Assembly: GCA_017622795.1 (NCBI GenBank)
Contig: JAGAQI010000032.1
Coordinates: forward strand, 1-34,024
Length of the DNA stretch: 34,024 bases
From: Lachnospiraceae bacterium
Lineage (GTDB): Bacteria > Bacillota > Clostridia > Lachnospirales > Lachnospiraceae
Direction: 5' to 3'
The notes under the pieces: generated by a model
What the model was told of the DNA's origin: nothing
Seen by the model: the letters and a program-made list of their open reading frames with translations, nothing else
Databases searched by the model: none
In this document: piece by piece, positions 2,106-11,139 of the stretch
Layout: the number at the start of each line of letters is the position of its first letter
How positions within the stretch are numbered: the first letter of the stretch is position 1
Position numbers and translations under genes: made by a program

Positions 2106-3469
2106 CCCTCGGTATCCTCTTCCACTTCGTCGGAAATTTCCATAACCGACTTCGGACCCTTAAATTCAAAGTACATATCCAGTGCTTTTAAAATATCGTC
2201 ATCGTCTTCATCCTTGGAAAGACTCGCTGCAACAGCCTTGGTTGCTGCAGGCATAGGATCCTTCTTTGGTGCTTTGCCCTTCTTTGGTGCAGAAGCTGCA
2301 CTGGTAAGTTTAATATCAAATAACTGCGCAATATCTATTTCTAAAGGCTGGGCCGGAGCTTCTGCCTTCACTTCTTCCTGCTTAGGCACCTCACCCGCTG
2401 CTTCCTTTGTTGCAGTCAGTTCTTCTGCAGCCACTGTTTCCTGTGTTGCCGCTACTGCTTCTTCTGCCTTTTTTTCTTCCTTTGCAGGTTCCGGCTTTTT
2501 GCCGCCCTTATTGTTCTTATTATTTTTACTGTTTTTTGAATTTTTCTTAGATTTCTTACTATCCTTTTCGATAAACGCGTGCCAATCAAATACTGCTTCA
2601 ACAGAAGCCATGGCCACTTCAATCATGGAATCGTCCGGCTCTCTTGTGGTTAATGCCTGAAGCCACATACCCGGTCTGCTGAGTATATTCACGATCGGAT
2701 TATTACTTCTTCCCGCCAAACGGATAAACTCATAAGAAACACCGGCAATTACAGGAATCAGTAATAAGCGTATCACAAAACGAAGTAATGTATTCTCTAC
2801 CCGGATGAAAATAAAGAAAATAATACTGATTACCATCACCGTGAGCATAAAGCTGGTACCGCAACGCTTATGTTCCCTGCTCTGCTTTCTTACATTTTCT
2901 ACCGTAAGCGGCAGTCCGTTTTCGATACAATTGATCGACTTATGCTCTGCTCCATGATACATAAACAGACGCTTGATGTCTTTCATTCTCGCAATCAAAA
3001 CAATATATAATACAAAAATCAACAAACGGAAGACACCTTCCAACACGGCAAGTACGGTCGGGTTGTCAATCTTTGCGGCCAGGAAGCCTGCCAACAGCAT
3101 CGGTGCAACCACAAAAATCCCCACGGCAAGCACTACTGCCAAAACCATGGTAAAACCGTTTAATATTCCATCTGCATGGCCTTTTGTCATCTCATTTAAT
3201 TTCTTTTCAAATTTGGATTCTTCCTCTTCTTCTTCATAAAAAGATGCAGAAAAAGTCAAGGTTTTCATTCCAAGGGACAAGGAGTCAACAAATGCCACCA
3301 CTCCTCGAACAATTGGCAGGCTTAAAACCTTATTTTTTCTTTCAGGAAGGGTATTTGTTTCAATAGCAATTTCTTTATTTGGTTTTCTGACAGCTACGGC
3401 ATACTTATTGCCGTTTTTCATCATAACACCTTCGATGACCGCCTGTCCGCCTATTCCGGATGGTTTCAT
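2102..3469 (-). CDS. DUF1385 family membrane protein (YqhQ-like)
   Basis: The protein starts MKPSGIGGQAVIEGVMMKNG, the hallmark N-terminus of the DUF1385/YqhQ family, and carries the family motif HGAEHK near residue 173. About four hydrophobic segments between residues 105 and 235 suggest a multi-pass membrane protein. The biochemical role is not known, although the gene commonly sits beside prmC and prfA in Clostridia. Unusual here is a long low-complexity tail (about 295-455) rich in Lys, Glu and Ala that the core family lacks; it is probably disordered and cytoplasmic. The ATG has AAGGAGGAACC upstream. The stop overlaps the prmC start by four bases. Confidence 0.9.
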   Translation of the reverse strand: MKPSGIGGQAVIEGVMMKNGNKYAVAVRKPNKEIAIETNTLPERKNKVLSLPIVRGVVAFVDSLSLGMKTLTFSASFYEEEEEESKFEKKLNEMTKGHADGILNGFTMVLAVVLAVGIFVVAPMLLAGFLAAKIDNPTVLAVLEGVFRLLIFVLYIVLIARMKDIKRLFMYHGAEHKSINCIENGLPLTVENVRKQSREHKRCGTSFMLTVMVISIIFFIFIRVENTLLRFVIRLLLIPVIAGVSYEFIRLAGRSNNPIVNILSRPGMWLQALTTREPDDSMIEVAMASVEAVFDWHAFIEKDSKKSKKNSKNSKNNKNNKGGKKPEPAKEEKKAEEAVAATQETVAAEELTATKEAAGEVPKQEEVKAEAPAQPLEIDIAQLFDIKLTSAASAPKKGKAPKKDPMPAATKAVAASLSKDEDDDDILKALDMYFEFKGPKSVMEISDEVEEDTEG

Positions 3470-3985: not shown

Positions 3986-5599
3986 TTAATTTATAATTTT
4001 TGTCTTTTTTATCATTTCTATAAAATCGGCGTTATTTCTTGTCTGGGTGAACAGCTTGATAATATTTTCCGTAGCCTCTTCCGACTTTACTCCGTTTAAC
4101 GCCCGACGCATTATGGTAGACGCTTCCAGTTCATTAGGATTAAGTAAAAGATCTTCCCGTCTGGTGCCGGACTTCGGTAAATCAATGGCAGGGAACACAC
4201 GACGTTCGGACAGATTTCTGTTCAGAACCAATTCCATGTTACCGGTTCCTTTAAATTCCTCGAATACCACATCATCCATGCGGCTGCCGGTGTCTACCAG
4301 GGCAGTAGCAAGAATGGTAAGACTTCCGCCCTCTCTCATATTTCGGGCAGCACCAAAGAATTTCTTTGGCATATGAAGTGCTGCCGGATCAAGACCGCCG
4401 GACAGCGTACGGCCACTGGCCTGTACAGTTAAGTTGTAAGCTCTGGCAAGACGAGTGATACTGTCGAGCAAGATTACAACATCCTTTTTATGCTCTACCA
4501 GACGCTTCGCCCGTTCAATTACCATTTCAGATACGCGTTTATGATTTTCCGGAAGTTCATCAAAGGTGGAATAGATGACTTCTACCTTTTCTCCTTCAAT
4601 AGATTCTTTAATATCGGTAACTTCCTCCGGACGTTCATCAATAAGCAAAATAATCAGATGCATATCCCGGTGATTTTTTGTAATAGCCTTAGCTACCTGC
4701 TTAAGCAACGTGGTTTTACCTGTTTTTGGCTGGGAAACAATCATTCCTCTCTGGCCTTTGCCGATTGGGGAAATTAAATCCACCATACGCATGGCAAGCG
4801 GACAGCCCGGCGTTTCCAGATGAATTCTCTCATTTGGAAAGATTGGTGTCAGATGTTCAAAGCGTGGTCTTCTCATCGGAGTTTCCGTCACCTGCACACC
4901 ATTAATGGATTTTACATATAACAACGGACTGAATTTCTCCGTTGCCGTACGGATTTTTGTATTACCTGAAACAATATCACCGGTACGGAGTCCGTATTTG
5001 CGAAGCAACGGCGTACTTACATACACGTCATTTTCACCCGGAAGATAGTTGTCACAACGAATAAAACCAAAGCCCTCCGGCATGATTTCGAGTATACCTG
5101 TTTTTGTTTCACCGCTGTCCAATGCTTCCAGTTCCTTTGGCGACATCGCTGCGATATCCTGCGGAGTAGGTCCCTTTGGCTGTTCCTGCGAAGCAGCTGC
5201 CGCCTGCGGACGCTGTTGGTTATAGCCGCTTTGCTGAGTATTATATGCCGGTCTCGGCTGCTGTACAAAAGACTGTGCAGCCGGACGACGCTGCACGGGA
5301 TATCCTGCTTGTCCTTTTTCCTGATATTGTACGGGACGACGCTCCGGTGCACTCTGATACGAAGCTTTTTTCTCTTCCTGTATCCGGGATTCTTCTGTTA
5401 CCGGCTCTTCTTTCCCTTCCTCAACAGCCGGTACATTTTTTGTTTCATCTTTTACGGAAGCTTTCTGCTCCTTTGCTTCAGGTTGCTCAGACAATAACTC
5501 CACTAATTCCGTTTTCCGCATGGTAGAAATGCCTTTTAACCCTCTTTTTTTTGCCTCTTCCTTTAATTCCGAAAGAGACCATACCGAATAATCTGCCAT
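3986..5599 (-). CDS. rho: Transcription termination factor Rho, with Gln/Pro-rich insertion
   Basis: Rho is a hexameric RNA-dependent ATPase that loads on nascent RNA and removes RNA polymerase. Domains in order: a Rho N-terminal SAP-like helical domain (1-40); a low-complexity linker (about 45-155) first rich in Glu and Lys, then in Gln, Pro, Tyr and Ala; the cold-shock-like RNA-binding domain with EGFGFIR near residue 170; and the RecA-like motor with Walker A QPKTGKTTL near residue 290, Walker B VVILLDSIT and the Q-loop region. At 537 residues it is longer than the roughly 420 of E. coli Rho because of the linker. The start has AAGGAG upstream. A transposon is inserted 119 bp before the start codon. 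Confidence 0.96.
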   Translation of the reverse strand: MADYSVWSLSELKEEAKKRGLKGISTMRKTELVELLSEQPEAKEQKASVKDETKNVPAVEEGKEEPVTEESRIQEEKKASYQSAPERRPVQYQEKGQAGYPVQRRPAAQSFVQQPRPAYNTQQSGYNQQRPQAAAASQEQPKGPTPQDIAAMSPKELEALDSGETKTGILEIMPEGFGFIRCDNYLPGENDVYVSTPLLRKYGLRTGDIVSGNTKIRTATEKFSPLLYVKSINGVQVTETPMRRPRFEHLTPIFPNERIHLETPGCPLAMRMVDLISPIGKGQRGMIVSQPKTGKTTLLKQVAKAITKNHRDMHLIILLIDERPEEVTDIKESIEGEKVEVIYSTFDELPENHKRVSEMVIERAKRLVEHKKDVVILLDSITRLARAYNLTVQASGRTLSGGLDPAALHMPKKFFGAARNMREGGSLTILATALVDTGSRMDDVVFEEFKGTGNMELVLNRNLSERRVFPAIDLPKSGTRREDLLLNPNELEASTIMRRALNGVKSEEATENIIKLFTQTRNNADFIEMIKKTKIIN

Positions 5600-5687
5600 A
5601 ACTCTTATTCTCCTTTTTACTTCTAAGTTTGTTGGGGGATTTATAGGGAAACAATAAATAACATAAGAAGACTTATGAATTTAATTT

Positions 5688-5716
5688 ATTATACATCATC
5701 TTTTAAAAAAAGAAAA
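5688..5716 (-). promoter_or_regulatory. Possible rho promoter
   Basis: A perfect TATAAT lies on the minus strand at 5693-5688, 88 bp before the rho start. With a 17-bp spacer the -35 would be TTTTCT (5716-5711), a weak match. The target duplication of the transposon begins at 5718, directly upstream of this -35. Confidence 0.45.
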
Positions 5717-5717
5717 G

Positions 5718-5725
5718 TAGTAATT
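5718..5725. repeat. Target-site duplication, left copy
   Basis: TAGTAATT directly precedes the left inverted repeat and is repeated exactly at 10099-10106 after the right inverted repeat. Eight bases is the duplication size expected for the IS1595 family. Confidence 0.85.
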
Positions 5726-5751
5726 TTATATTATCCAATAATCAGTTGATG
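5726..5751 (+). repeat. Left terminal inverted repeat of the transposon
   Basis: Reads TTATATTATCCAAT, then AATCAG, then TTGATG. The reverse complement of 10073-10098 reads TTATATTATCCAAT, CAGTAG, TTGATG, giving 23 of 26 matches without gaps. Confidence 0.85.
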
Positions 5752-5854
5752 GTTCTATCCCCTTTATTTAAGCCCTTTTCGCTTCAAAATCCCTTAAAAT
5801 AGGCATTTTCTTGGAGTTGAAAACCGTAAAATTTAACAGTAGGAAAAACATAAT

Positions 5855-5891
5855 AAAAAGACCTAAAGGGATTTCTCCAATAGGTCTTTTT
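5855..5891 (-). terminator. Terminator near the left transposon end
   Basis: AAAAAGACCTA and TAGGTCTTTTT form an 11-bp stem around a 15-base loop. The stem ends in a T-run on either strand, so it could stop transcription leaving or entering the element. No convincing gene lies between it and the 49-residue peptide unit. Confidence 0.65.
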
Positions 5892-5996
5892 CTCTTAGAA
5901 CACTTTTTATTTTCTCAAACACCTTAAGGATTGTATTTTCAGAATGGTAAGATAAAATAAAAATATAAAAACTTTTTAAAATTAGAAAGAAAAAAA

Positions 5997-6036
5997 GCCA
6001 ACGACTTAATGTGCTGCAACACACTAAGCCATTGAC
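5997..6036 (-). terminator. Terminator of the 49-residue peptide gene
   Basis: On the minus strand a 17-bp stem with a six-base loop is followed by seven T. All 17 positions pair only if G-U pairs are allowed, and those pairs exist only in the minus-strand RNA, so the direction is clear. It lies 20 bp after the peptide stop codon. Confidence 0.8.
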
Positions 6037-6055
6037 CTCCCTTGCAGGCATTATT

Positions 6056-6205
6056 TTAAAAATACTTACTTATATCTTCAAGAATCATTTCGATGGCATA
6101 ACCAGCGACAGTATTTCTTGCAAACGTAAGCATTCGAATAATGTTTCTCTGGGTTACTTTTTTGGTTAGTACTTTTTTTAGAAATTTCAAAAGTTTCCTA
6201 ATCAT
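6056..6205 (-). CDS. Small cationic peptide, 49 residues, function unknown
   Basis: The reading frame runs from ATG at 6205 to TAA at 6056 and gives a 49-residue peptide starting MIRKLLKFLKKVLTKKVTQR and ending LEDISKYF. The N-terminal half is a basic amphipathic helix candidate (Lys/Arg alternating with Leu/Ile/Val/Phe); the C-terminal half is more neutral to acidic. There is no signal peptide. Support for a real gene is strong: GAAAGGAGGG eight to nine bases before the ATG, a promoter with TTGAAC-17-TATAAT upstream, and a directional terminator 20 bp downstream. It forms a self-contained unit near the left end of the transposon. Family is not recognised; membrane-active peptide, toxin or DNA-binding accessory are possible but unproven. 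Confidence 0.7.
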   Translation of the reverse strand: MIRKLLKFLKKVLTKKVTQRNIIRMLTFARNTVAGYAIEMILEDISKYF

Positions 6206-6268
6206 AGGCACACCCTCCTTTCTCAATTTATAGAAAGTTCTCCTAGCGCTCTAGTTAGCACAAATCTC

Positions 6269-6297
6269 ATTATAACAAAAAATTCCCAAAGGTTCAA
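6269..6297 (-). promoter_or_regulatory. Promoter of the 49-residue peptide gene
   Basis: On the minus strand TTGAAC (6297-6292), a 17-bp spacer and TATAAT (6274-6269) with TGT before it (extended -10). The leader would be near 57 bases. The -35 sits in the loop of the upstream terminator hairpin, so the two signals overlap. Confidence 0.7.
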
Positions 6298-6314
6298 CTC
6301 CTTTGGGAATTTTT
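6278..6314. terminator. Terminator after the lipoprotein unit
   Basis: AAAAATTCCCAAAGG (6278-6292) pairs perfectly with CCTTTGGGAATTTTT (6300-6314) around a seven-base loop; the arms provide a T-run on either strand. It ends the minus-strand lipoprotein transcript, roughly 257 bases after the stop codon. Confidence 0.8.
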
Positions 6315-6411
6315 ATTTTATATAAAAAACTTTCCTTATTAACCAATGAGAATAACTATTTATGCCCATAGCACTCTCTCAAGCTCAAACAAATTATTTA
6401 AGTGAAACGAA

Positions 6412-6506
6412 GGTAACTAAGGGCGAAGATGTGCGGGAAGTTTAACTTCTGCCCGTCCTTTGGCTCTTAGGCTTCTACAGTTGGAATACTACCATCTTGG
6501 GTACAT
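6412..6506 (-). ncRNA. Candidate structured RNA with a five-codon reading frame, 3' of the lipoprotein gene
   Basis: The 250 bp between the lipoprotein stop and its terminator holds no normal gene but several nested complementary segments: GGTA 6412-6415 with TACC 6490-6493, CTAAG 6417-6421 with CTTAG 6466-6470, and an inner stem CGGGAAG 6434-6440 with CTTCtgCCCG 6446-6455 (two-base bulge, five-base loop). On the minus strand a good ribosome site (GAGGAG, 6519-6514) stands seven bases before an ATG at 6506 that opens MYPRW and stops at 6489, at the outer edge of the fold. The G+C of this patch is higher than that of the rest of the transposon. Strand and function are inferred. Confidence 0.4.
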
Positions 6507-6570
6507 ATTTTATCTCCTCTGTACAATATGATTTGTTTCTTAGGTAAGAGACATATTTTTGTATTTGAAA

Positions 6571-7740
6571 TTAACGAGGTTTAATCTCAAATACGATATG
6601 CATTCCGCCATTTTCTGTAAGGTAGGAATCTTCGATTGCATACCTTACTGCACAGTCTGCAATAGGGTAAAACTTCTTTGTGTAAATATCAGAAGAATCA
6701 CCATAGAGACCATCGTAAAGATAATCAAATAACACAGTTGGCTCACTACTTATCATAGATAACATAGCAACCAAAATTTCCCTGCTGTAAGGAGCAACGT
6801 CCTTACCAGTGTAAATATCTTCCTTTAAGTTGACATTAACTACAACCTCATAGTATCCAGCAGTTTTATTTTTATTTAATTCAAGGTCACCAGTAGCAGA
6901 CCAACCAGAATAATGCCATTCAAGACTACCGTTACTTAAGGAAAAGCCATTGGAAGAATTACCAATTACACCCTTATCAAGAAGTGCATCGTGAGTTGCT
7001 TCTAATGTAGCCCAAAGAATTTCAGACTGCTTCTCACCATAACCAGGTGTTTCGGCATCACCAAACCAACCGTCCTCAGTAAGGCCAAGGTCGTTGAAAT
7101 CGTCAAGAACTGGTATAGATACTCCAATTTTATCCAATTCAATAGTGTCACCCCAAGTCATCATACTACCATCATTAACTACTGGAGCCTTAGTAGGTTC
7201 TGGAGTTGGAGTAGCAGTAGGCTTAGGAGTTGCTGTCGGAGTAGGCTTTGGAGTAGCCGTAGGAACTGGTGTACTTGTAGCAGTTGGCACTGGAGTTGCC
7301 GTTGGAACTGGAGTGTTTGTTACTGTAGGCACTGGGGTTTCTGTTGGCTTTGGAGTAGCCGTAGGAACAGGAGTATTTGTTACTGTAGGCTCTGGAGTCG
7401 GAGTGCTACTTGGAGTAGGTTCTGGACTTGGAGTGCTTGTTGCTGTAGGCATTGGACTCGGAGTACTTGTTAAGGTAGGTAAAGGTGATGGTGTTGGAGT
7501 AGAGTTTGGCTCCTTAGTTGGCTCTATAATCGAGGTAGGCTCTATTACAGGCTCTTGAGTAATGGTAGGCAAGAGTGTTGGCTCTACTGCTTCCGTTGGC
7601 TCTATAGTTGAGGTAGGAACAAGGGATGGGACTTGTGTATTAGTTGGAGCAAGGGAAGGTACAACAGATGTTTCTTTGCTTCCGCAAGCACATAAAAGAC
7701 CTAAAGTTAATAAGCTTGTATATAAAATAAATTTTCTCAT
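6571..7740 (-). CDS. Lipoprotein with Pro/Thr repeat stalk, transposon passenger
   Basis: The 389-residue protein has a lipoprotein signal peptide, MRKFILYTSLLTLGLLCAC, with lipobox LCAC and the lipidated cysteine at residue 19. Residues about 28-190 are a Pro/Thr/Ser stalk with irregular repeats of the type TPVPTATPKPT. Residues about 190-389 form a globular domain that starts near DGSMMTWGDTIELD and ends HIVFEIKPR; it has many Trp, Tyr and Asp residues and matches no family I recognise. The design suggests a domain displayed above the cell wall on a flexible stalk. The ATG follows AAAGGAGA and a promoter with TATAAT lies upstream. The stalk DNA is repetitive, so copy number may vary. It is probable cargo of the IS1595-like element. 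Confidence 0.85.
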   Translation of the reverse strand: MRKFILYTSLLTLGLLCACGSKETSVVPSLAPTNTQVPSLVPTSTIEPTEAVEPTLLPTITQEPVIEPTSIIEPTKEPNSTPTPSPLPTLTSTPSPMPTATSTPSPEPTPSSTPTPEPTVTNTPVPTATPKPTETPVPTVTNTPVPTATPVPTATSTPVPTATPKPTPTATPKPTATPTPEPTKAPVVNDGSMMTWGDTIELDKIGVSIPVLDDFNDLGLTEDGWFGDAETPGYGEKQSEILWATLEATHDALLDKGVIGNSSNGFSLSNGSLEWHYSGWSATGDLELNKNKTAGYYEVVVNVNLKEDIYTGKDVAPYSREILVAMLSMISSEPTVLFDYLYDGLYGDSSDIYTKKFYPIADCAVRYAIEDSYLTENGGMHIVFEIKPR

Positions 7741-7777
7741 AAGTAATTCTCTCCTTTTTGCTTTGGCACTTTAGTTC

Positions 7778-7806
7778 ATTATAGCACAATAATAAGGGTA
7801 AATCAA
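7778..7806 (-). promoter_or_regulatory. Promoter of the lipoprotein gene
   Basis: Minus strand TTGATT (7806-7801), a 17-bp spacer, and TATAAT (7783-7778) preceded by TGC (extended -10). The -10 ends 38 bp before the start codon. Confidence 0.75.
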
Positions 7807-7859
7807 ATTTGAAATTAGGATAAATTATTATTTATAAAGCTGTTTTTATTAATAAGTGT

Positions 7860-7888
7860 TTTACAATTTATGTAATATATTTTATACA
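7860..7888 (+). promoter_or_regulatory. Possible promoter for the plus-strand micropeptides
   Basis: TTTACA (7860-7865), a 17-bp spacer and TATACA (7883-7888). Transcription would start close to the AAAGGAG ribosome site at 7894, leaving a very short leader, so the true start may differ. Confidence 0.4.
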
Positions 7889-7910
7889 ACAAGAAAGGAG
7901 TTTGAAGCGT

Positions 7911-7985
7911 ATGATAGAGTTGTATAAAAGTAACAATAAAAGAAGCTATCAATTAATATTTATATGGAGTATAAAGCTCTTGTAA
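7911..7985 (+). CDS. Micropeptide, 24 residues, function unknown
   Basis: The frame ATG 7911 to TAA 7985 encodes MIELYKSNNKRSYQLIFIWS followed by IKLL. A good ribosome site, AAAGGAG (7894-7900), lies ten bases before the ATG. The peptide has a short basic middle and a hydrophobic end. It is the first of two small frames on the plus strand, opposite in direction to every other gene of the transposon. It may be a leader peptide for the second frame, 24 bp downstream, rather than a functional product. No family recognised. Confidence 0.45.
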   Translation: MIELYKSNNKRSYQLIFIWSIKLL

Positions 7986-8009
7986 AAAATAATTGATGGA
8001 GGAAATTTA

Positions 8010-8108
8010 ATGAAAGATAATAGAAATAGCCATTGGGATAAAGTAATTATTATAATTGCTAATATTCTCAAAACTATCTATTATTTATTAAAGTTATTAG
8101 AAGAATAA
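8010..8108 (+). CDS. Micropeptide, 32 residues, hydrophobic, function unknown
   Basis: The frame ATG 8010 to TAA 8108 encodes a peptide that begins MKDNRNSHWDK and continues with an Ile/Leu-rich stretch (VIIIIANILKTIYYLLKLL) ending in two glutamates. TGGAGG stands seven bases before the ATG. The shape, a polar head followed by one hydrophobic helix, resembles membrane-inserting small proteins such as type I toxins or regulatory peptides, but this is only a resemblance. A strong terminator follows at 8152-8210, so the two plus-strand frames form one short transcript of about 300 bases inside the transposon. Confidence 0.5.
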   Translation: MKDNRNSHWDKVIIIIANILKTIYYLLKLLEE

Positions 8109-8151
8109 CTTTATAAGTTTTCCACTTCTTTTATTTGTTACAAAACAAATA

Positions 8152-8210
8152 AAAAAAGAGCAATCTTTTTCCTGATGCTGTCAACATCAGGTTTTTTAAT
8201 GCTCTTTTTT
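8152..8210. terminator. Nested bidirectional terminator
   Basis: Outer stem AAAAAAGAGCA (8152-8162) with TGCTCTTTTTT (8200-8210), inner stem CCTGATG (8171-8177) with CATCAGG (8185-8191) followed by GTTTTTTAA. It serves both the plus-strand micropeptides and the minus-strand transposase. A second small hairpin (TTATTTGTT / AACAAATAA) lies just before it. Confidence 0.8.
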
Positions 8211-8272
8211 ATATAAGTTTTCCATCTTCTTAATATATCTTATACATTTTATGATTATTTTATTCCATAAAA

Positions 8273-9874
8273 TTAATGACTATATTTCTTAGACTTAATT
8301 ACCTCAAGGTCTTCTTCACTAATGTCATAGTGTCTGTGTTCACCTATGAGAAGAAGTATATCATCATCAATATGAGGTTTGGTTAGAAGCTCACTAATTT
8401 TACTATACTTAACATACTTACTTGGAATACGGTATTTTTTACAAAGCTCATTAAGTTTATATAAGGGAATATCCTCAAGGAACTTGCGTTTGTTAAAGCT
8501 TACTACATTATCCTCTTCATCATATTTAAAGTATGGGTTCTTGGTAAGCGTTCTCATCCGTTCAGTTTTCTCTTTAAGAAGCGTCATATACTTATCACTT
8601 GCCTTTGGAAGAGTAATTTCTGCTTCCTTTAAATCCTTGTTTGTATAATTAGTTTTTCCTTTTAAAATGTCAATGAATATACTTTCGGCATCTGTAAGGG
8701 AAGATGGGTAATGACCGTTGCTTACTTTCCAGTTTCTAAGGTATGTATAAAAGCCAATGTAATCTTCTAAATATTTAGTTGATACTCCTTTAGGATTACA
8801 CACAAGAAATCTTTTAAGTTCACCGTGAAACTGATTTACTCTCGCAAGAGAAAGGCTGTTAGCATTCTTTAATTCATAAAACTCCTTATAGCTTAAATCA
8901 TCTCTGCCTACAATGTAATCAATCTGTCTTTTATAGTAAAGCTTCTCTAATATTTTCTGATTCTCTTCTTCCTGCTTAGCAGCAAGTGTAGTAGAACTCC
9001 AATCAGGTGTTTCATAGCCATTATCAGTAATTGTTTTAAGGTAGTTTGAAGGTTTTATATAAAGAGGAATATTCTTAAGCTCACAATAATTCTTATAAAC
9101 AAAGTTTCCATCAGCACAGATGAAGGAAGGATTATCAATATAAGAATCAAACATATCAGTAAAGACTTCCTTTGTAAGTTTGCCAAGGCCAATTACTTTT
9201 GATACACAAAAGCCCTTTAAGTCAACCATACACACTACATTAGCATACTCATTTCCCATTACACCATAATTTGATGATACTCTGCCGTACCTTGGAGTTC
9301 TATTTTCTCCCTTTACAAATGAAACTAACTCCCTGGAGCCTTTCTGTGATTCCCTAAAGAAAGTTTCATCTATCTGTATTACACCAGAAAGACGAGGAAG
9401 CGGCATACTAGCTAGTGCGTGAATGATTTTGTGCTTCCAAAGGAAAACTGTCTTATAATCAAGTTCTAAAAGCTTATAGTCCTTATGAAGAGTTTCAACT
9501 ATATGTTCTACTGGTATATTATTAAGCACCATAGAAAGCACAGCAATCCATATGTCCCAATGATATTTTGTTTTCTCTAAGATAGTATTTGTGAAGAGTG
9601 TAAATGTTTTACTACAAGCTTTACACTTAAATCTTTTAATATTACCATTTTTACCAAACCCTACAATATTTTTTCCTTTACAATAAGGACAATCTGTGTT
9701 TATATTGTTATTAACAAGTCTGTTTTGAAAATCATTAATAATAAGACTTTTCTTTACTGCACTTACATCGGTGCTAGTTGATGCAGAATATGTATTTAAC
9801 ATACTAATTATTTCTGTAAGAGAATATGTATTAAGTTGTTTTTGAATATCATCTTTACTTATTTTTCTACTCAT
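8273..9874 (-). CDS. IS1595-like (ISXO2-type) transposase with C-terminal extension
   Basis: The 533-residue protein probably moves the element that contains it. It has a zinc ribbon with Cys 62, 65, 84 and 87, then a helix-turn-helix-like stretch. The ISXO2-type catalytic part starts at IQIDETFF (Asp 169), includes FICADGNF (Asp 255) and ends with VNQFHGELK (Asn 347, Glu 352, Lys 354), followed by GVSTKYLEDYI, which fits the end of that domain. Usual family members have about 300 residues. Here there is a 40-residue insert after Asp 255 and a C-terminal addition of about 150 residues, including a helix-extended-loop-helix/SAP-like piece near 478-505 that may bind DNA. The ATG follows AAAGGAG. 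Family placement is by motif only. Confidence 0.75.
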   Translation of the reverse strand: MSRKISKDDIQKQLNTYSLTEIISMLNTYSASTSTDVSAVKKSLIINDFQNRLVNNNINTDCPYCKGKNIVGFGKNGNIKRFKCKACSKTFTLFTNTILEKTKYHWDIWIAVLSMVLNNIPVEHIVETLHKDYKLLELDYKTVFLWKHKIIHALASMPLPRLSGVIQIDETFFRESQKGSRELVSFVKGENRTPRYGRVSSNYGVMGNEYANVVCMVDLKGFCVSKVIGLGKLTKEVFTDMFDSYIDNPSFICADGNFVYKNYCELKNIPLYIKPSNYLKTITDNGYETPDWSSTTLAAKQEEENQKILEKLYYKRQIDYIVGRDDLSYKEFYELKNANSLSLARVNQFHGELKRFLVCNPKGVSTKYLEDYIGFYTYLRNWKVSNGHYPSSLTDAESIFIDILKGKTNYTNKDLKEAEITLPKASDKYMTLLKEKTERMRTLTKNPYFKYDEEDNVVSFNKRKFLEDIPLYKLNELCKKYRIPSKYVKYSKISELLTKPHIDDDILLLIGEHRHYDISEEDLEVIKSKKYSH

Positions 9875-9981
9875 ATAGGAACTCCTTTCTCTTTTTTATA
9901 TAAATATTATATAAATTAAGGAGTCCCAAAAAACGGACTTGCGTGTTAAAAAATGAACTTTTCGCTTTCAACAAATTCTAA

Positions 9982-10017
9982 AAAAGAGCCTATTTTTATA
10001 CAAAAACAAGCTCTTTT
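9982..10017. terminator. Hairpin near the right transposon end
   Basis: AAAAGAGC (9982-9989) and GCTCTTTT (10010-10017) pair perfectly around a 20-base loop. The T-run lies within the stem arms. It could reduce read-through between the transposon and yhcC. Two further small palindromes (GTGC/GCAC near 10030 and AAGGTA/TACCTT near 10060) lie between it and the right inverted repeat. Confidence 0.4.
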
Positions 10018-10072
10018 CACAAAATGTAGTGCTTATCAGCACACTTTCCCTACTGGATAAGGTAAGTACCTT

Positions 10073-10098
10073 CATCAACTACTGATTGGATAATATAA
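10073..10098 (-). repeat. Right terminal inverted repeat of the transposon
   Basis: The reverse complement begins TTATATTATCCAAT and matches the left end at 23 of 26 positions. Confidence 0.85.
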
Positions 10099-10106
10099 TA
10101 GTAATT
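10099..10106. repeat. Target-site duplication, right copy
   Basis: TAGTAATT, identical to 5718-5725. Confidence 0.85.
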
Positions 10107-10114
10107 CGTATTCA

Positions 10115-10143
10115 TTGACGAAAAACTTTTTCAGTGATAGAAT
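10115..10143 (+). promoter_or_regulatory. Promoter of yhcC
   Basis: TTGACG (10115-10120), a 17-bp spacer and TAGAAT (10138-10143). It begins nine bases after the transposon target duplication, so the insertion left the core promoter intact but replaced everything upstream. Transcription would start near 10150. Confidence 0.75.
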
Positions 10144-10185
10144 AATTAATTGTACGACTTCTACATAAAAGAGGAAAAACAGGCA

Positions 10186-11139
10186 ATGAAACCGTATTTT
10201 TTCAGTGCAGATGAATATTTTAAAGAAACCTTCGGAAAAAAAATGTACCGTCTCTCCTTGGACGGCGGTATGACCTGCCCAAACCGTGACGGTAACAAAG
10301 GAATTGGCGGTTGCACATTTTGCAGTGCCATGGGGTCCGGCGATTTTGCCGCTCCTCGCCAAATCACCATTACCGAACAGTTGGATACAGCTAAAGCCCG
10401 GATAAAAAACAAATTGCCGAAAAACGGCGCACCTTACGGTTATGTAGCCTATTATCAATCTTATACCAACACTTATGCCCCTATAGAATACTTACGCAGT
10501 CTGTTTACGGAAACCATCCTTCGTCCGGAGGTAGAAGCACTTTTTATTGGTACAAGACCTGACTGTCTTCCGGATACGGTTCTTGCTCTTTTGAAGGAAC
10601 TTGCGGCAATAAAACCGGTCTATGTGGAGCTTGGACTCCAAACCGCAAAACAGGAGTCTGTCGAGTATATCAACCGTTGTTATGACAATTCTGTTTTCGA
10701 ACAGGCAGTGCGGAATTTAAATACTTTAGAAATACCGGTTATCGTTCACTGCATCCTTGGTTTACCCTACGAAACCACGGATGATATGAAACATACCATA
10801 GATTATATCTGTGCACTTCCGATACATGGAATAAAGCTGCAGTTGCTGCATATTTTAAAAGGGACAGGCTTAGCGGCCGATTATGAAGGTTTTTTACACG
10901 ACCATGCCTTTTCCTGTTTGGAGCGCGAACAGTACTTTCATATTTTGACCGAACTGCTTCCGCGTATTCCGGCACACATTGTAATTTACCGGCTCACCGG
11001 TGACGGTCCGCGTAACCAGCTGATTGCTCCTTTATGGAGCATTGATAAAAAGCGGGTACAAAATGACCTGCGAAAACTACTGAAAGATAAAAATATTATT
11101 CAGGGAGGAGATTTACCGCCATGCAATCCGATGCTTTAA
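10186..11139 (+). CDS. YhcC-like radical SAM protein (TIGR01212 type)
   Basis: The 317-residue protein has the cysteine pattern C31, C43, C46 in MTCPNRDGNKGIGGCTFCS, which in this family holds a [4Fe-4S] cluster that splits S-adenosylmethionine. The sequence is close to the YhcC branch (relatives of Elp3) with TRPDCLPD and ELGLQTA stretches typical of it. The substrate is unknown. The start is set at the ATG 10186 with GAGG upstream; an in-frame TTG at 10150 coincides with the expected transcription start and is unlikely. The DUF4364 gene overlaps its 3' end by 19 bp, so the two are co-transcribed. Confidence 0.9.
   Translation: MKPYFFSADEYFKETFGKKMYRLSLDGGMTCPNRDGNKGIGGCTFCSAMGSGDFAAPRQITITEQLDTAKARIKNKLPKNGAPYGYVAYYQSYTNTYAPIEYLRSLFTETILRPEVEALFIGTRPDCLPDTVLALLKELAAIKPVYVELGLQTAKQESVEYINRCYDNSVFEQAVRNLNTLEIPVIVHCILGLPYETTDDMKHTIDYICALPIHGIKLQLLHILKGTGLAADYEGFLHDHAFSCLEREQYFHILTELLPRIPAHIVIYRLTGDGPRNQLIAPLWSIDKKRVQNDLRKLLKDKNIIQGGDLPPCNPML

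What the first reader, a model, noticed from the sequence alone, without database searches (positions are those of the whole stretch)
5718..10106. Complete IS1595-like transposon with readable ends, target duplication and passenger genes
Directly seen: 26-bp terminal inverted repeats (5726-5751 and 10073-10098, 23 of 26 matches, first 14 identical) flanked by an exact 8-bp direct repeat TAGTAATT. Known: the IS1595 family makes 8-bp duplications and some members carry passenger genes. Inferred: everything between, including a lipoprotein and micropeptides, moves as one 4.37-kb unit. Few such units are this compact, with four transcription units fenced by terminators.
Basis: partly seen in the sequence, partly recalled or inferred. 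Interest (0 to 1): 0.8.

Follow-up and report, generated by a model that had tools for sequence, protein, structure and literature searches.

The report
Jumping gene with swappable cargo slot
A 4.4-kb bacterial jumping element of the IS1595 type carries a surface lipoprotein gene beside its transposase, and related elements carry unrelated genes in the same place, so the element looks like a compact carrier whose cargo gets exchanged.

Summary
Terminal inverted repeats (23 of 26, first 14 identical) lie next to an exact 8-bp repeat, and no other 8-bp repeat pair in the window passes the same filter. A species of the same genus has the empty site with one TAGTAATT. The 533-aa transposase passes NCBIfam's IS1595 cut-off, keeps the DDN..K residues and joins seven other long transposases in one clade (100/100), next to ISSag10 (82/87). 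An Oscillibacter element 66% alike in transposase has nearly the same ends, its own 8-bp duplication and a different cargo, a restriction-modification pair. So the unit is real and its ends are placed correctly. IS1595 elements with passenger genes ('tIS', e.g. tISSag10/MTnSag1) are already known. New here: a long-transposase subgroup with altered tips, and a defined cargo slot: three relatives share about 93% of their backbone yet hold three unrelated cargo genes, two of the elements in one genome. The window's main cargo is a lipoprotein with a paralogue elsewhere in the genome; the 'micropeptides' have ribosome sites but no convincing relatives. Side find outside the window: a TTTTATAAAA array at 21/22-bp spacing in four related loci.

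The parts
5718..5725 (.). target-site duplication, left copy TAGTAATT
   Evidence: sequence; only one copy in the empty site of congener L007
5726..5751 (+). terminal inverted repeat, cargo-side end
   Evidence: 23/26 with the other end; GTTG at positions 20-23, as at both ends of 7 of the 9 IS1595 reference elements whose ends were found
5726..5804 (+). cargo-side end block (TIR plus about 50 bp) shared with the Oscillibacter element
   Evidence: blastn element 1-79 to L002 9527-9450, 75%
5994..6039 (-). terminator-like hairpin behind the 49-aa ORF
   Evidence: scan
6056..6205 (-). 49-aa cationic ORF with strong ribosome site; possible small peptide
   Evidence: GGAGGG upstream; no homologue in plasmids; besides its own genome only weak matches (E 0.02-0.09) in 5 of 195 genomes searched; unproven
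6278..6314 (.). 15-bp perfect stem behind the lipoprotein gene, terminator-like
   Evidence: the scan lists it on the + strand; its symmetry on the - strand is my reading
6571..7740 (-). cargo: 389-aa lipoprotein (signal peptide with L-C-A-C lipobox, Pro/Thr stalk of about 160 residues, C-terminal domain of about 200)
   Evidence: ORF and ribosome site; C-terminal domain 34% identical to a second protein in the same genome, G000:C47; no Pfam or NCBIfam match; signal and lipobox read by eye
7778..7806 (-). promoter-like site TTGATT-17-TATAAT with TG, upstream of the lipoprotein
   Evidence: consensus scan (29 such sites found in the region against 18.8 in shuffles), not proof
7911..7985 (+). 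24-aa ORF with ribosome site; possible leader or small peptide
   Evidence: unproven
8010..8108 (+). 32-aa hydrophobic ORF with ribosome site; possible membrane micropeptide
   Evidence: no match in phages; unproven
8152..8210 (.). inverted repeat, terminator-like, between the convergent small-ORF unit and the transposase
8273..9874 (-). transposase, 533 aa: N-terminal zinc ribbon (C62, C65, C84, C87), catalytic residues D169, D255, N347, K354, an insertion before N347 and a C-terminal extension of over 100 residues
   Evidence: NCBIfam NF033547 84.8 bits (cut-off 75), NF050000 30.6 (cut-off 28); alignments and tree
10073..10098 (-). terminal inverted repeat, transposase-side end
   Evidence: blastn element 4342-4373 to L002 5802-5771, 91%
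10099..10106 (.). target-site duplication, right copy TAGTAATT

Best explanation
This is a complete single-unit transposon of the IS1595 family ('transporter IS' type) that inserted between the divergent genes rho and yhcC in an ancestor of this strain. Shown: matched ends, target duplication, an empty site in a congener, a homologous element with nearly the same ends elsewhere, and an intact transposase ORF with its catalytic residues. Inferred from established knowledge of DDE transposases and of the related element tISSag10/MTnSag1: the transposase binds the inner part of the 26-bp ends, probably through its zinc ribbon, cuts or copies the element out (a replicative, circular intermediate is suggested for MTnSag1) and joins it to an AT-rich target with an 8-bp stagger. 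Everything between the ends moves along. The region from behind the transposase to about 40-80 bp short of the far end is a cargo slot. It holds one or a few self-contained transcription units, here a lipoprotein that probably came from the chromosome of a related host. The slot is refilled over evolutionary time, so nearly the same backbone carries different genes in different copies.
For: TIR and TSD beyond chance. Empty site with a single TAGTAATT; 3 of 3 congeners held are uninserted. IS1595 HMM above cut-off. Long-transposase clade 100/100, next to ISSag10 at 82/87. Convincing TIR-plus-duplication pair in 5 of 11 related loci examined besides the window; the duplication is 8 bp in four and 9 bp in L030. 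Transposase near one end reading inward and cargo behind it in all six complete elements, window included. Cargos differ: IceA-family endonuclease plus methyltransferase (L002), SLH protein plus lipoprotein (L030), exported membrane protein (L029), lipoprotein (L032), DUF4180 (L033); pairwise BLASTP among ten cargo sequences gives nothing below E 0.004, that one over 28 residues of two lipoproteins. L031, L032 and L033: 93% identical over 2.0-2.4 kb and 89-97% over the last 38-75 bp, with unrelated cargos between. Transposase under purifying selection in that trio (dN 0.02-0.03, dS 0.21-0.24).
Against: No second transposase in the own genome at E 1e-3; the end pattern gave, besides the two known ends, two 3-mismatch matches against one in the control. 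So recent activity in this strain is not shown; the genome is a 147-contig draft, 87% complete. Pfam's IS1595 DDE model does not hit. The TIR tip differs from the GGC/CGC tip of all nine reference elements whose ends were found. The inner GTTG motif is absent from L030, L032 and L033. Some long relatives depart from DDN..K: L032 and L033 have D for N, L030 has T for K, L036 lacks all four. The slot was not seen refilled on this exact backbone: its nearest relative, L002, is only 66% identical in transposase. For 6 of the 11 related loci no TIR pair was found, most of them at contig ends.
Confidence: 0.9

Rival explanations
1. A simple IS1595-like insertion sequence landed next to a resident lipoprotein locus; the outer repeat is a solo end or second-copy remnant, and the cargo was always chromosomal.
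For: A paralogue of the lipoprotein domain lies on another contig of this genome, so such lipoproteins do occur in the host.
Against: The congener's empty site joins the flanks with nothing between them, so the cargo was not resident there; a single 8-bp duplication brackets transposase plus cargo; the Oscillibacter element has nearly the same two ends around another cargo.
Confidence: 0.04
2. The cargo is not a passenger but an accessory part of transposition or element maintenance, for example a surface protein or small membrane peptides that help spread between cells or act as an addiction module.
For: At least one cargo protein has an export signal in 4 of the 6 complete elements (window, L029, L030, L032; read by eye); the small ORFs have strong ribosome sites.
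Against: Cargos are not detectably related to each other and include a restriction-modification pair and DUF4180, and close backbones carry different genes, so no one cargo is needed for movement. PADLOC has no match for the three window cargo proteins scanned.
Confidence: 0.12
3. The element is an immobile relic: ends and duplication survive, but the transposase is dead or domesticated.
For: Only one transposase of this kind in the genome; a relative (L036) keeps an open frame but has lost the aligned catalytic residues.
Against: In the window all four catalytic positions, the zinc-ribbon cysteines and both ends are intact.
Confidence: 0.1

Closest known systems
tISSag10 / MTnSag1 (and tISCpe8), IS1595-family elements with a passenger gene (PMC5704250, passages seen; that the passenger is lincosamide resistance: title of the tISCpe8 paper in that reference list and the annotation of L039)
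   Same: DDN..K transposase with zinc ribbon; 8-bp duplication; TIRs with GTTG at positions 20-23; transposase first, passenger behind it (in L039 a TIR pair bracketed by duplications 1318-1325 and 3051-3058 encloses transposase and lnu(C)). Nearest reference in the tree.
   Different: Transposase 345 aa instead of 533, without the insertion before N347 and the long C-terminal extension, 25% identical; GGC tips instead of TTATAT; passenger is a resistance gene; conjugal mobilisation is reported for it and was not tested here.
ISAma5, ISMsa1, ISH4 and other classical IS1595-family elements
   Same: 8-bp duplication, DDN..K in ISAma5 and ISMsa1 (ISH4 has E and R at the last two positions).
   Different: The ends found lie about 1 kb apart in these three; ends start GGC or CGC; transposase 294-320 aa.
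Oscillibacter sp. MSJ-31 element (L002, found here; I know of no description in print, and searched for none by name)
   Same: Transposase 66% identical, ends nearly the same, 8-bp duplication, same layout.
   Different: Cargo is an IceA-family endonuclease plus DNA methyltransferase.

Membership tests
IS1595 family of insertion sequences | 8-bp target duplication (PMC8101967 passages) | tested here: met
   TAGTAATT twice in the window, once in the empty site
IS1595 family of insertion sequences | N-terminal zinc-binding domain, except IS1016 group | tested here: met
   NF050000 30.6 bits, cut-off 28
IS1595 family of insertion sequences | DDE_Tnp_IS1595 catalytic domain | tested here: met
   NCBIfam NF033547 84.8 bits, cut-off 75. 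Against: the Pfam form PF12762 gives no match at E 0.1 for the window and 18.6 bits (cut-off 27) for relative L032, so this is a divergent member
IS1595 family of insertion sequences | single transposase gene between terminal inverted repeats | tested here: met
   one transposase ORF between 5726 and 10098
IS1595 family of insertion sequences | ends like those of known groups (GGC or CGC tip in the nine reference elements whose ends were found; not named as defining in the passages seen) | tested here: inconclusive
   tip TTATAT does not fit; inner GTTG at 20-23 fits at both window ends
transporter IS (tIS: IS with passenger genes) | gene unrelated to transposition between the ends of an otherwise single-unit IS (PMC3129680 passage) | tested here: met
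   lipoprotein ORF inside the unit; different cargos in relatives
integrative and mobilisable element of the MTnSag1 kind | mobilised between cells by a conjugative element; circular form | not tested
   no origin of transfer was sought; mobilisation and circle need an experiment

The most novel reading that the evidence does not exclude
The long-transposase IS1595 clade is a family of cassette transposons of Clostridia: a fixed backbone (end, transposase, end block) with one slot in which complete promoter-gene-terminator units are exchanged often, mostly surface proteins and sometimes restriction-modification systems. They would spread single surface genes between distant hosts much as integron cassettes do, but without an integrase.
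Probability: 0.4. Interest if true: 0.65.

Novelty: new variant of a known kind. Interest (0 to 1): 0.45.

Why it matters
The passenger-carrying IS1595 elements that I met in the papers (tISSag10, tISCpe8) carry resistance genes. This clade shows the same plan with surface and defence cargo, with ends sharp enough to annotate and with a natural experiment (same backbone, three cargos) that makes the question of how a simple transposon changes its cargo directly testable. It also gives annotators end sequences (TTATATTATCC..., CCTATAACT...) that a search for the usual GGC tips would miss.

Tried and rejected
Rfam on 5600-10250: three matches, all far below their families' gathering scores, taken as terminator look-alikes. 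Relatives in viral contigs: none for the transposase alignment or the lipoprotein domain; lipoprotein domain in plasmids: none; in 391 genomes of the class only the own. Transposase in phages: two distant Streptococcus records; in plasmids 86 records, all under 60% identity, none covering 80% of the query. A DNA search of the cargo half in 98 relatives gave 15 genomes with matches, the own included; outside the element the strongest hits fall on the Pro/Thr repeat region and the rest are short stretches, so I dropped them as evidence of cargo elsewhere. The 55-aa 'micropeptide' of L032 (49 aa in L033) was dropped: its FIK repeats are read off the TTTTATAAAA array. The 49-aa ORF's matches in 5 of 195 genomes besides the own, E 0.02-0.09 and inside longer frames, were rejected. 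A pattern scan of viral contigs for the array gave 30 stretches that I did not follow. Ends of two reference loci (L076, L079) were not found, also on a second try with wider bounds for L076. Papers: I saw search listings and passages only; Siguier et al. 2009, which defines the family, and a 2014 review are not held, so whether they already describe long transposases or cargo exchange is not known to me.
Full report
OBSERVATION. The stretch 5718-10106 reads as described: TAGTAATT at 5718-5725 and 10099-10106, and inverted repeats at 5726-5751 and 10073-10098 with 23 of 26 matches, the first 14 identical. Among 9588 pairs of identical 8-mers 0.3-10 kb apart in the window it is the only pair flanked by an inverted repeat of 17/26 or more (or 12 of the first 14); the best in 60 first-order Markov windows was 14-18 of 26.

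EMPTY SITE. The protein encoded right of the element (yhcC-like) was found in all 4 genomes of the genus that are held, the own included. In the three others the left and right flanks match within a few bases (L007, L008) or about 200 diverged bases (L009) of each other, with no insert. In G001 (L007) the junction reads AAAAGTAGTAATTCG, with a single TAGTAATT; in G003 (L008) the site is diverged (AAAAGTAGGAAATCG), in G002 (L009) more so. The element therefore arrived as a unit, cargo included. It lies between two divergent genes; a promoter-like TTGACG-17-TAGAAT at 10115-10143 stays just outside the right duplication. The names rho and yhcC are recognised from the sequences; I ran no family search on either.

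TRANSPOSASE. The 533-aa ORF (8273-9874, minus) scores 84.8 bits against NCBIfam IS1595 (cut-off 75) and 30.6 against the IS1/IS1595 zinc domain (cut-off 28). Pfam gives nothing above its cut-offs. In an alignment with seven other long and eleven reference transposases the window keeps D169, D255, N347 and K354. Departures there: E and R at the last two positions in ISH4 and ISNpe7, a gap and E in Niallia_b; among the long ones D for N in L032 and L033, T for K in L030, and all four lost in L036. Compared with ISSag10, ISAma5 and a Niallia element the window protein has an extra segment between the second D and the N, and a C-terminal extension of over 100 residues. The eight long transposases form one clade (100/100); the fork joining them to ISSag10 has 82/87, so that placing is moderate.

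RELATIVES. A scan of genome contigs gave 4 loci: Oscillibacter sp. MSJ-31 at 66%, three MAGs at 39-40%. Among 397 genomes of the family only the own has a match at E 1e-60; among 391 of the class 7, the own included; one copy in the own genome. Of 11 related loci examined for ends five gave a convincing TIR-plus-duplication pair: L002 (AATTTGCT), L029 (TTTTTTCA), L030 (TTATCTGAT, 9 bp; no 8-bp solution), L032 (TTTTTTGT), L033 (CCTAAAAT). In the other six (L031, L034-L038) none was found; L031 shows only the cargo-side end because its contig stops, and L035-L038 lie at contig ends.

ENDS. Eleven reference IS1595 loci were scanned; a pair was found in nine, all with GGC or CGC tips; GTTG stands at positions 20-23 at both ends in seven, at one end in one (Niallia_b), not in ISOar1. 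Both window ends and both L002 ends have GTTG at 20-23, L029 at one end, and L030, L032, L033 do not (positions counted by me on the sequences). So the inner motif links the nearest long elements to the family, while the tips (TTATAT, or CCTATA in L032/L033) have changed.

CARGO SLOT. In all six complete elements the transposase starts near one end and reads inward, with cargo behind it. Cargos: window, 389-aa lipoprotein; L002, endonuclease of the IceA family PF05315 plus methyltransferase PF01555; L029, 209-aa exported membrane protein; L030, 115-aa lipoprotein and 318-aa SLH protein; L032, 214-aa lipoprotein; L033, DUF4180 (export signals read by eye). That IceA proteins resemble NlaIII is recalled. 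Pairwise BLASTP among ten cargo sequences (two of them versions of the window lipoprotein) gave nothing below E 0.004, and that over 28 residues of two lipoproteins. L031 and L032 (same genome) and L033 (another family) are 93% identical pairwise over 2.02-2.43 kb of backbone and 89-97% over the last 38-75 bp, while the cargo between is unrelated (148-aa membrane protein in L031, no Pfam match). In these three each cargo appears to have its own TTGAC..TATAAT promoter and a hairpin behind it (read by eye). The transposases differ by dN 0.02-0.03 against dS 0.21-0.24, so they have been kept functional. Window against L002 is saturated at silent sites.

WINDOW CARGO. The lipoprotein has a signal peptide ending in LLCAC, a Pro/Thr stalk and a C-terminal domain 34% identical to a protein at the start of contig C47 of the same genome. 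Among 391 class genomes only the own matched that domain. A two-row profile of it found 4 of 397 family genomes, the own included; the three others are weak matches (E 8e-8 to 1.9e-4) inside proteins that look secreted, two of them next to an ORF that looks like a phosphatase by eye. A chromosomal origin of the cargo is therefore likely but not shown. The 49-, 24- and 32-aa ORFs have good ribosome sites; the 49- and 32-aa ones were searched and have no convincing relatives.

MECHANISM AND NOVELTY. From passages of PMC5704250: MTnSag1/tISSag10 and tISCpe8 are IS1595-type elements with 25-bp ends and 8-bp duplications, insertion sequences with passenger genes; a circular intermediate was found for MTnSag1 and replicative excision is suggested. 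PMC3129680 and PMC8496243 state that passenger-carrying 'transporter IS' are recognised, the latter naming this family. So the kind is known. The long transposase, the altered tips and the cargo change on a nearly constant backbone are the additions; the listings of my paper searches showed no description of them, but the defining 2009 paper could not be read.

VERDICT. The step from 'passenger' to 'frequently exchanged cassette' is supported by one trio and by the window/Oscillibacter pair, and needs a wider survey.

Noticed in passing
L032 7125-7718, L033 9561-10155, L034 7448-7640, L031 9640-9749: Array of TTTTATAAAA-like words at 21/22-bp steps (a few of 33 or 44) between the transposase-side end and the transposase start, just before its promoter-like site: 17, 17, 9 and 5 copies of TTTATAA against 0.25-0.82 on average in 500 shuffles. 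Not in the window element, L002, L029 or L030. Possibly phased binding sites for transposase or a host protein; unexplained.
   Followed up: partly
L036 7705-9279 (G426): A long transposase whose frame is open but whose aligned catalytic D, D, N, K read G, Y, E, E: a dead or domesticated member.
   Followed up: no
L044 1-2000 (G000:C47): The lipoprotein's paralogue is followed by a 23S rRNA intervening-sequence (four-helix) protein gene, PF05635, and an ORF that looks like ArdA antirestriction by eye, with no Pfam match; possible mobile region.
   Followed up: partly
L002 5771-9527: A restriction-modification pair (IceA-family endonuclease plus methyltransferase) carried inside a 3.76-kb single-unit transposon.
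   Followed up: partly
L041 1253-3033 and L076 1672-3392: Short IS1595 elements with possible passengers: a DinB-family gene inside the Niallia TIR pair; MarR and YciI genes directly behind an Alicyclobacillus transposase, ends not found.
   Followed up: partly
window 5855-5891 and 9980-10018: Terminator-like stems just inside both ends, seen by eye and not listed by the scan; they may insulate cargo and neighbours from read-through.
   Followed up: no
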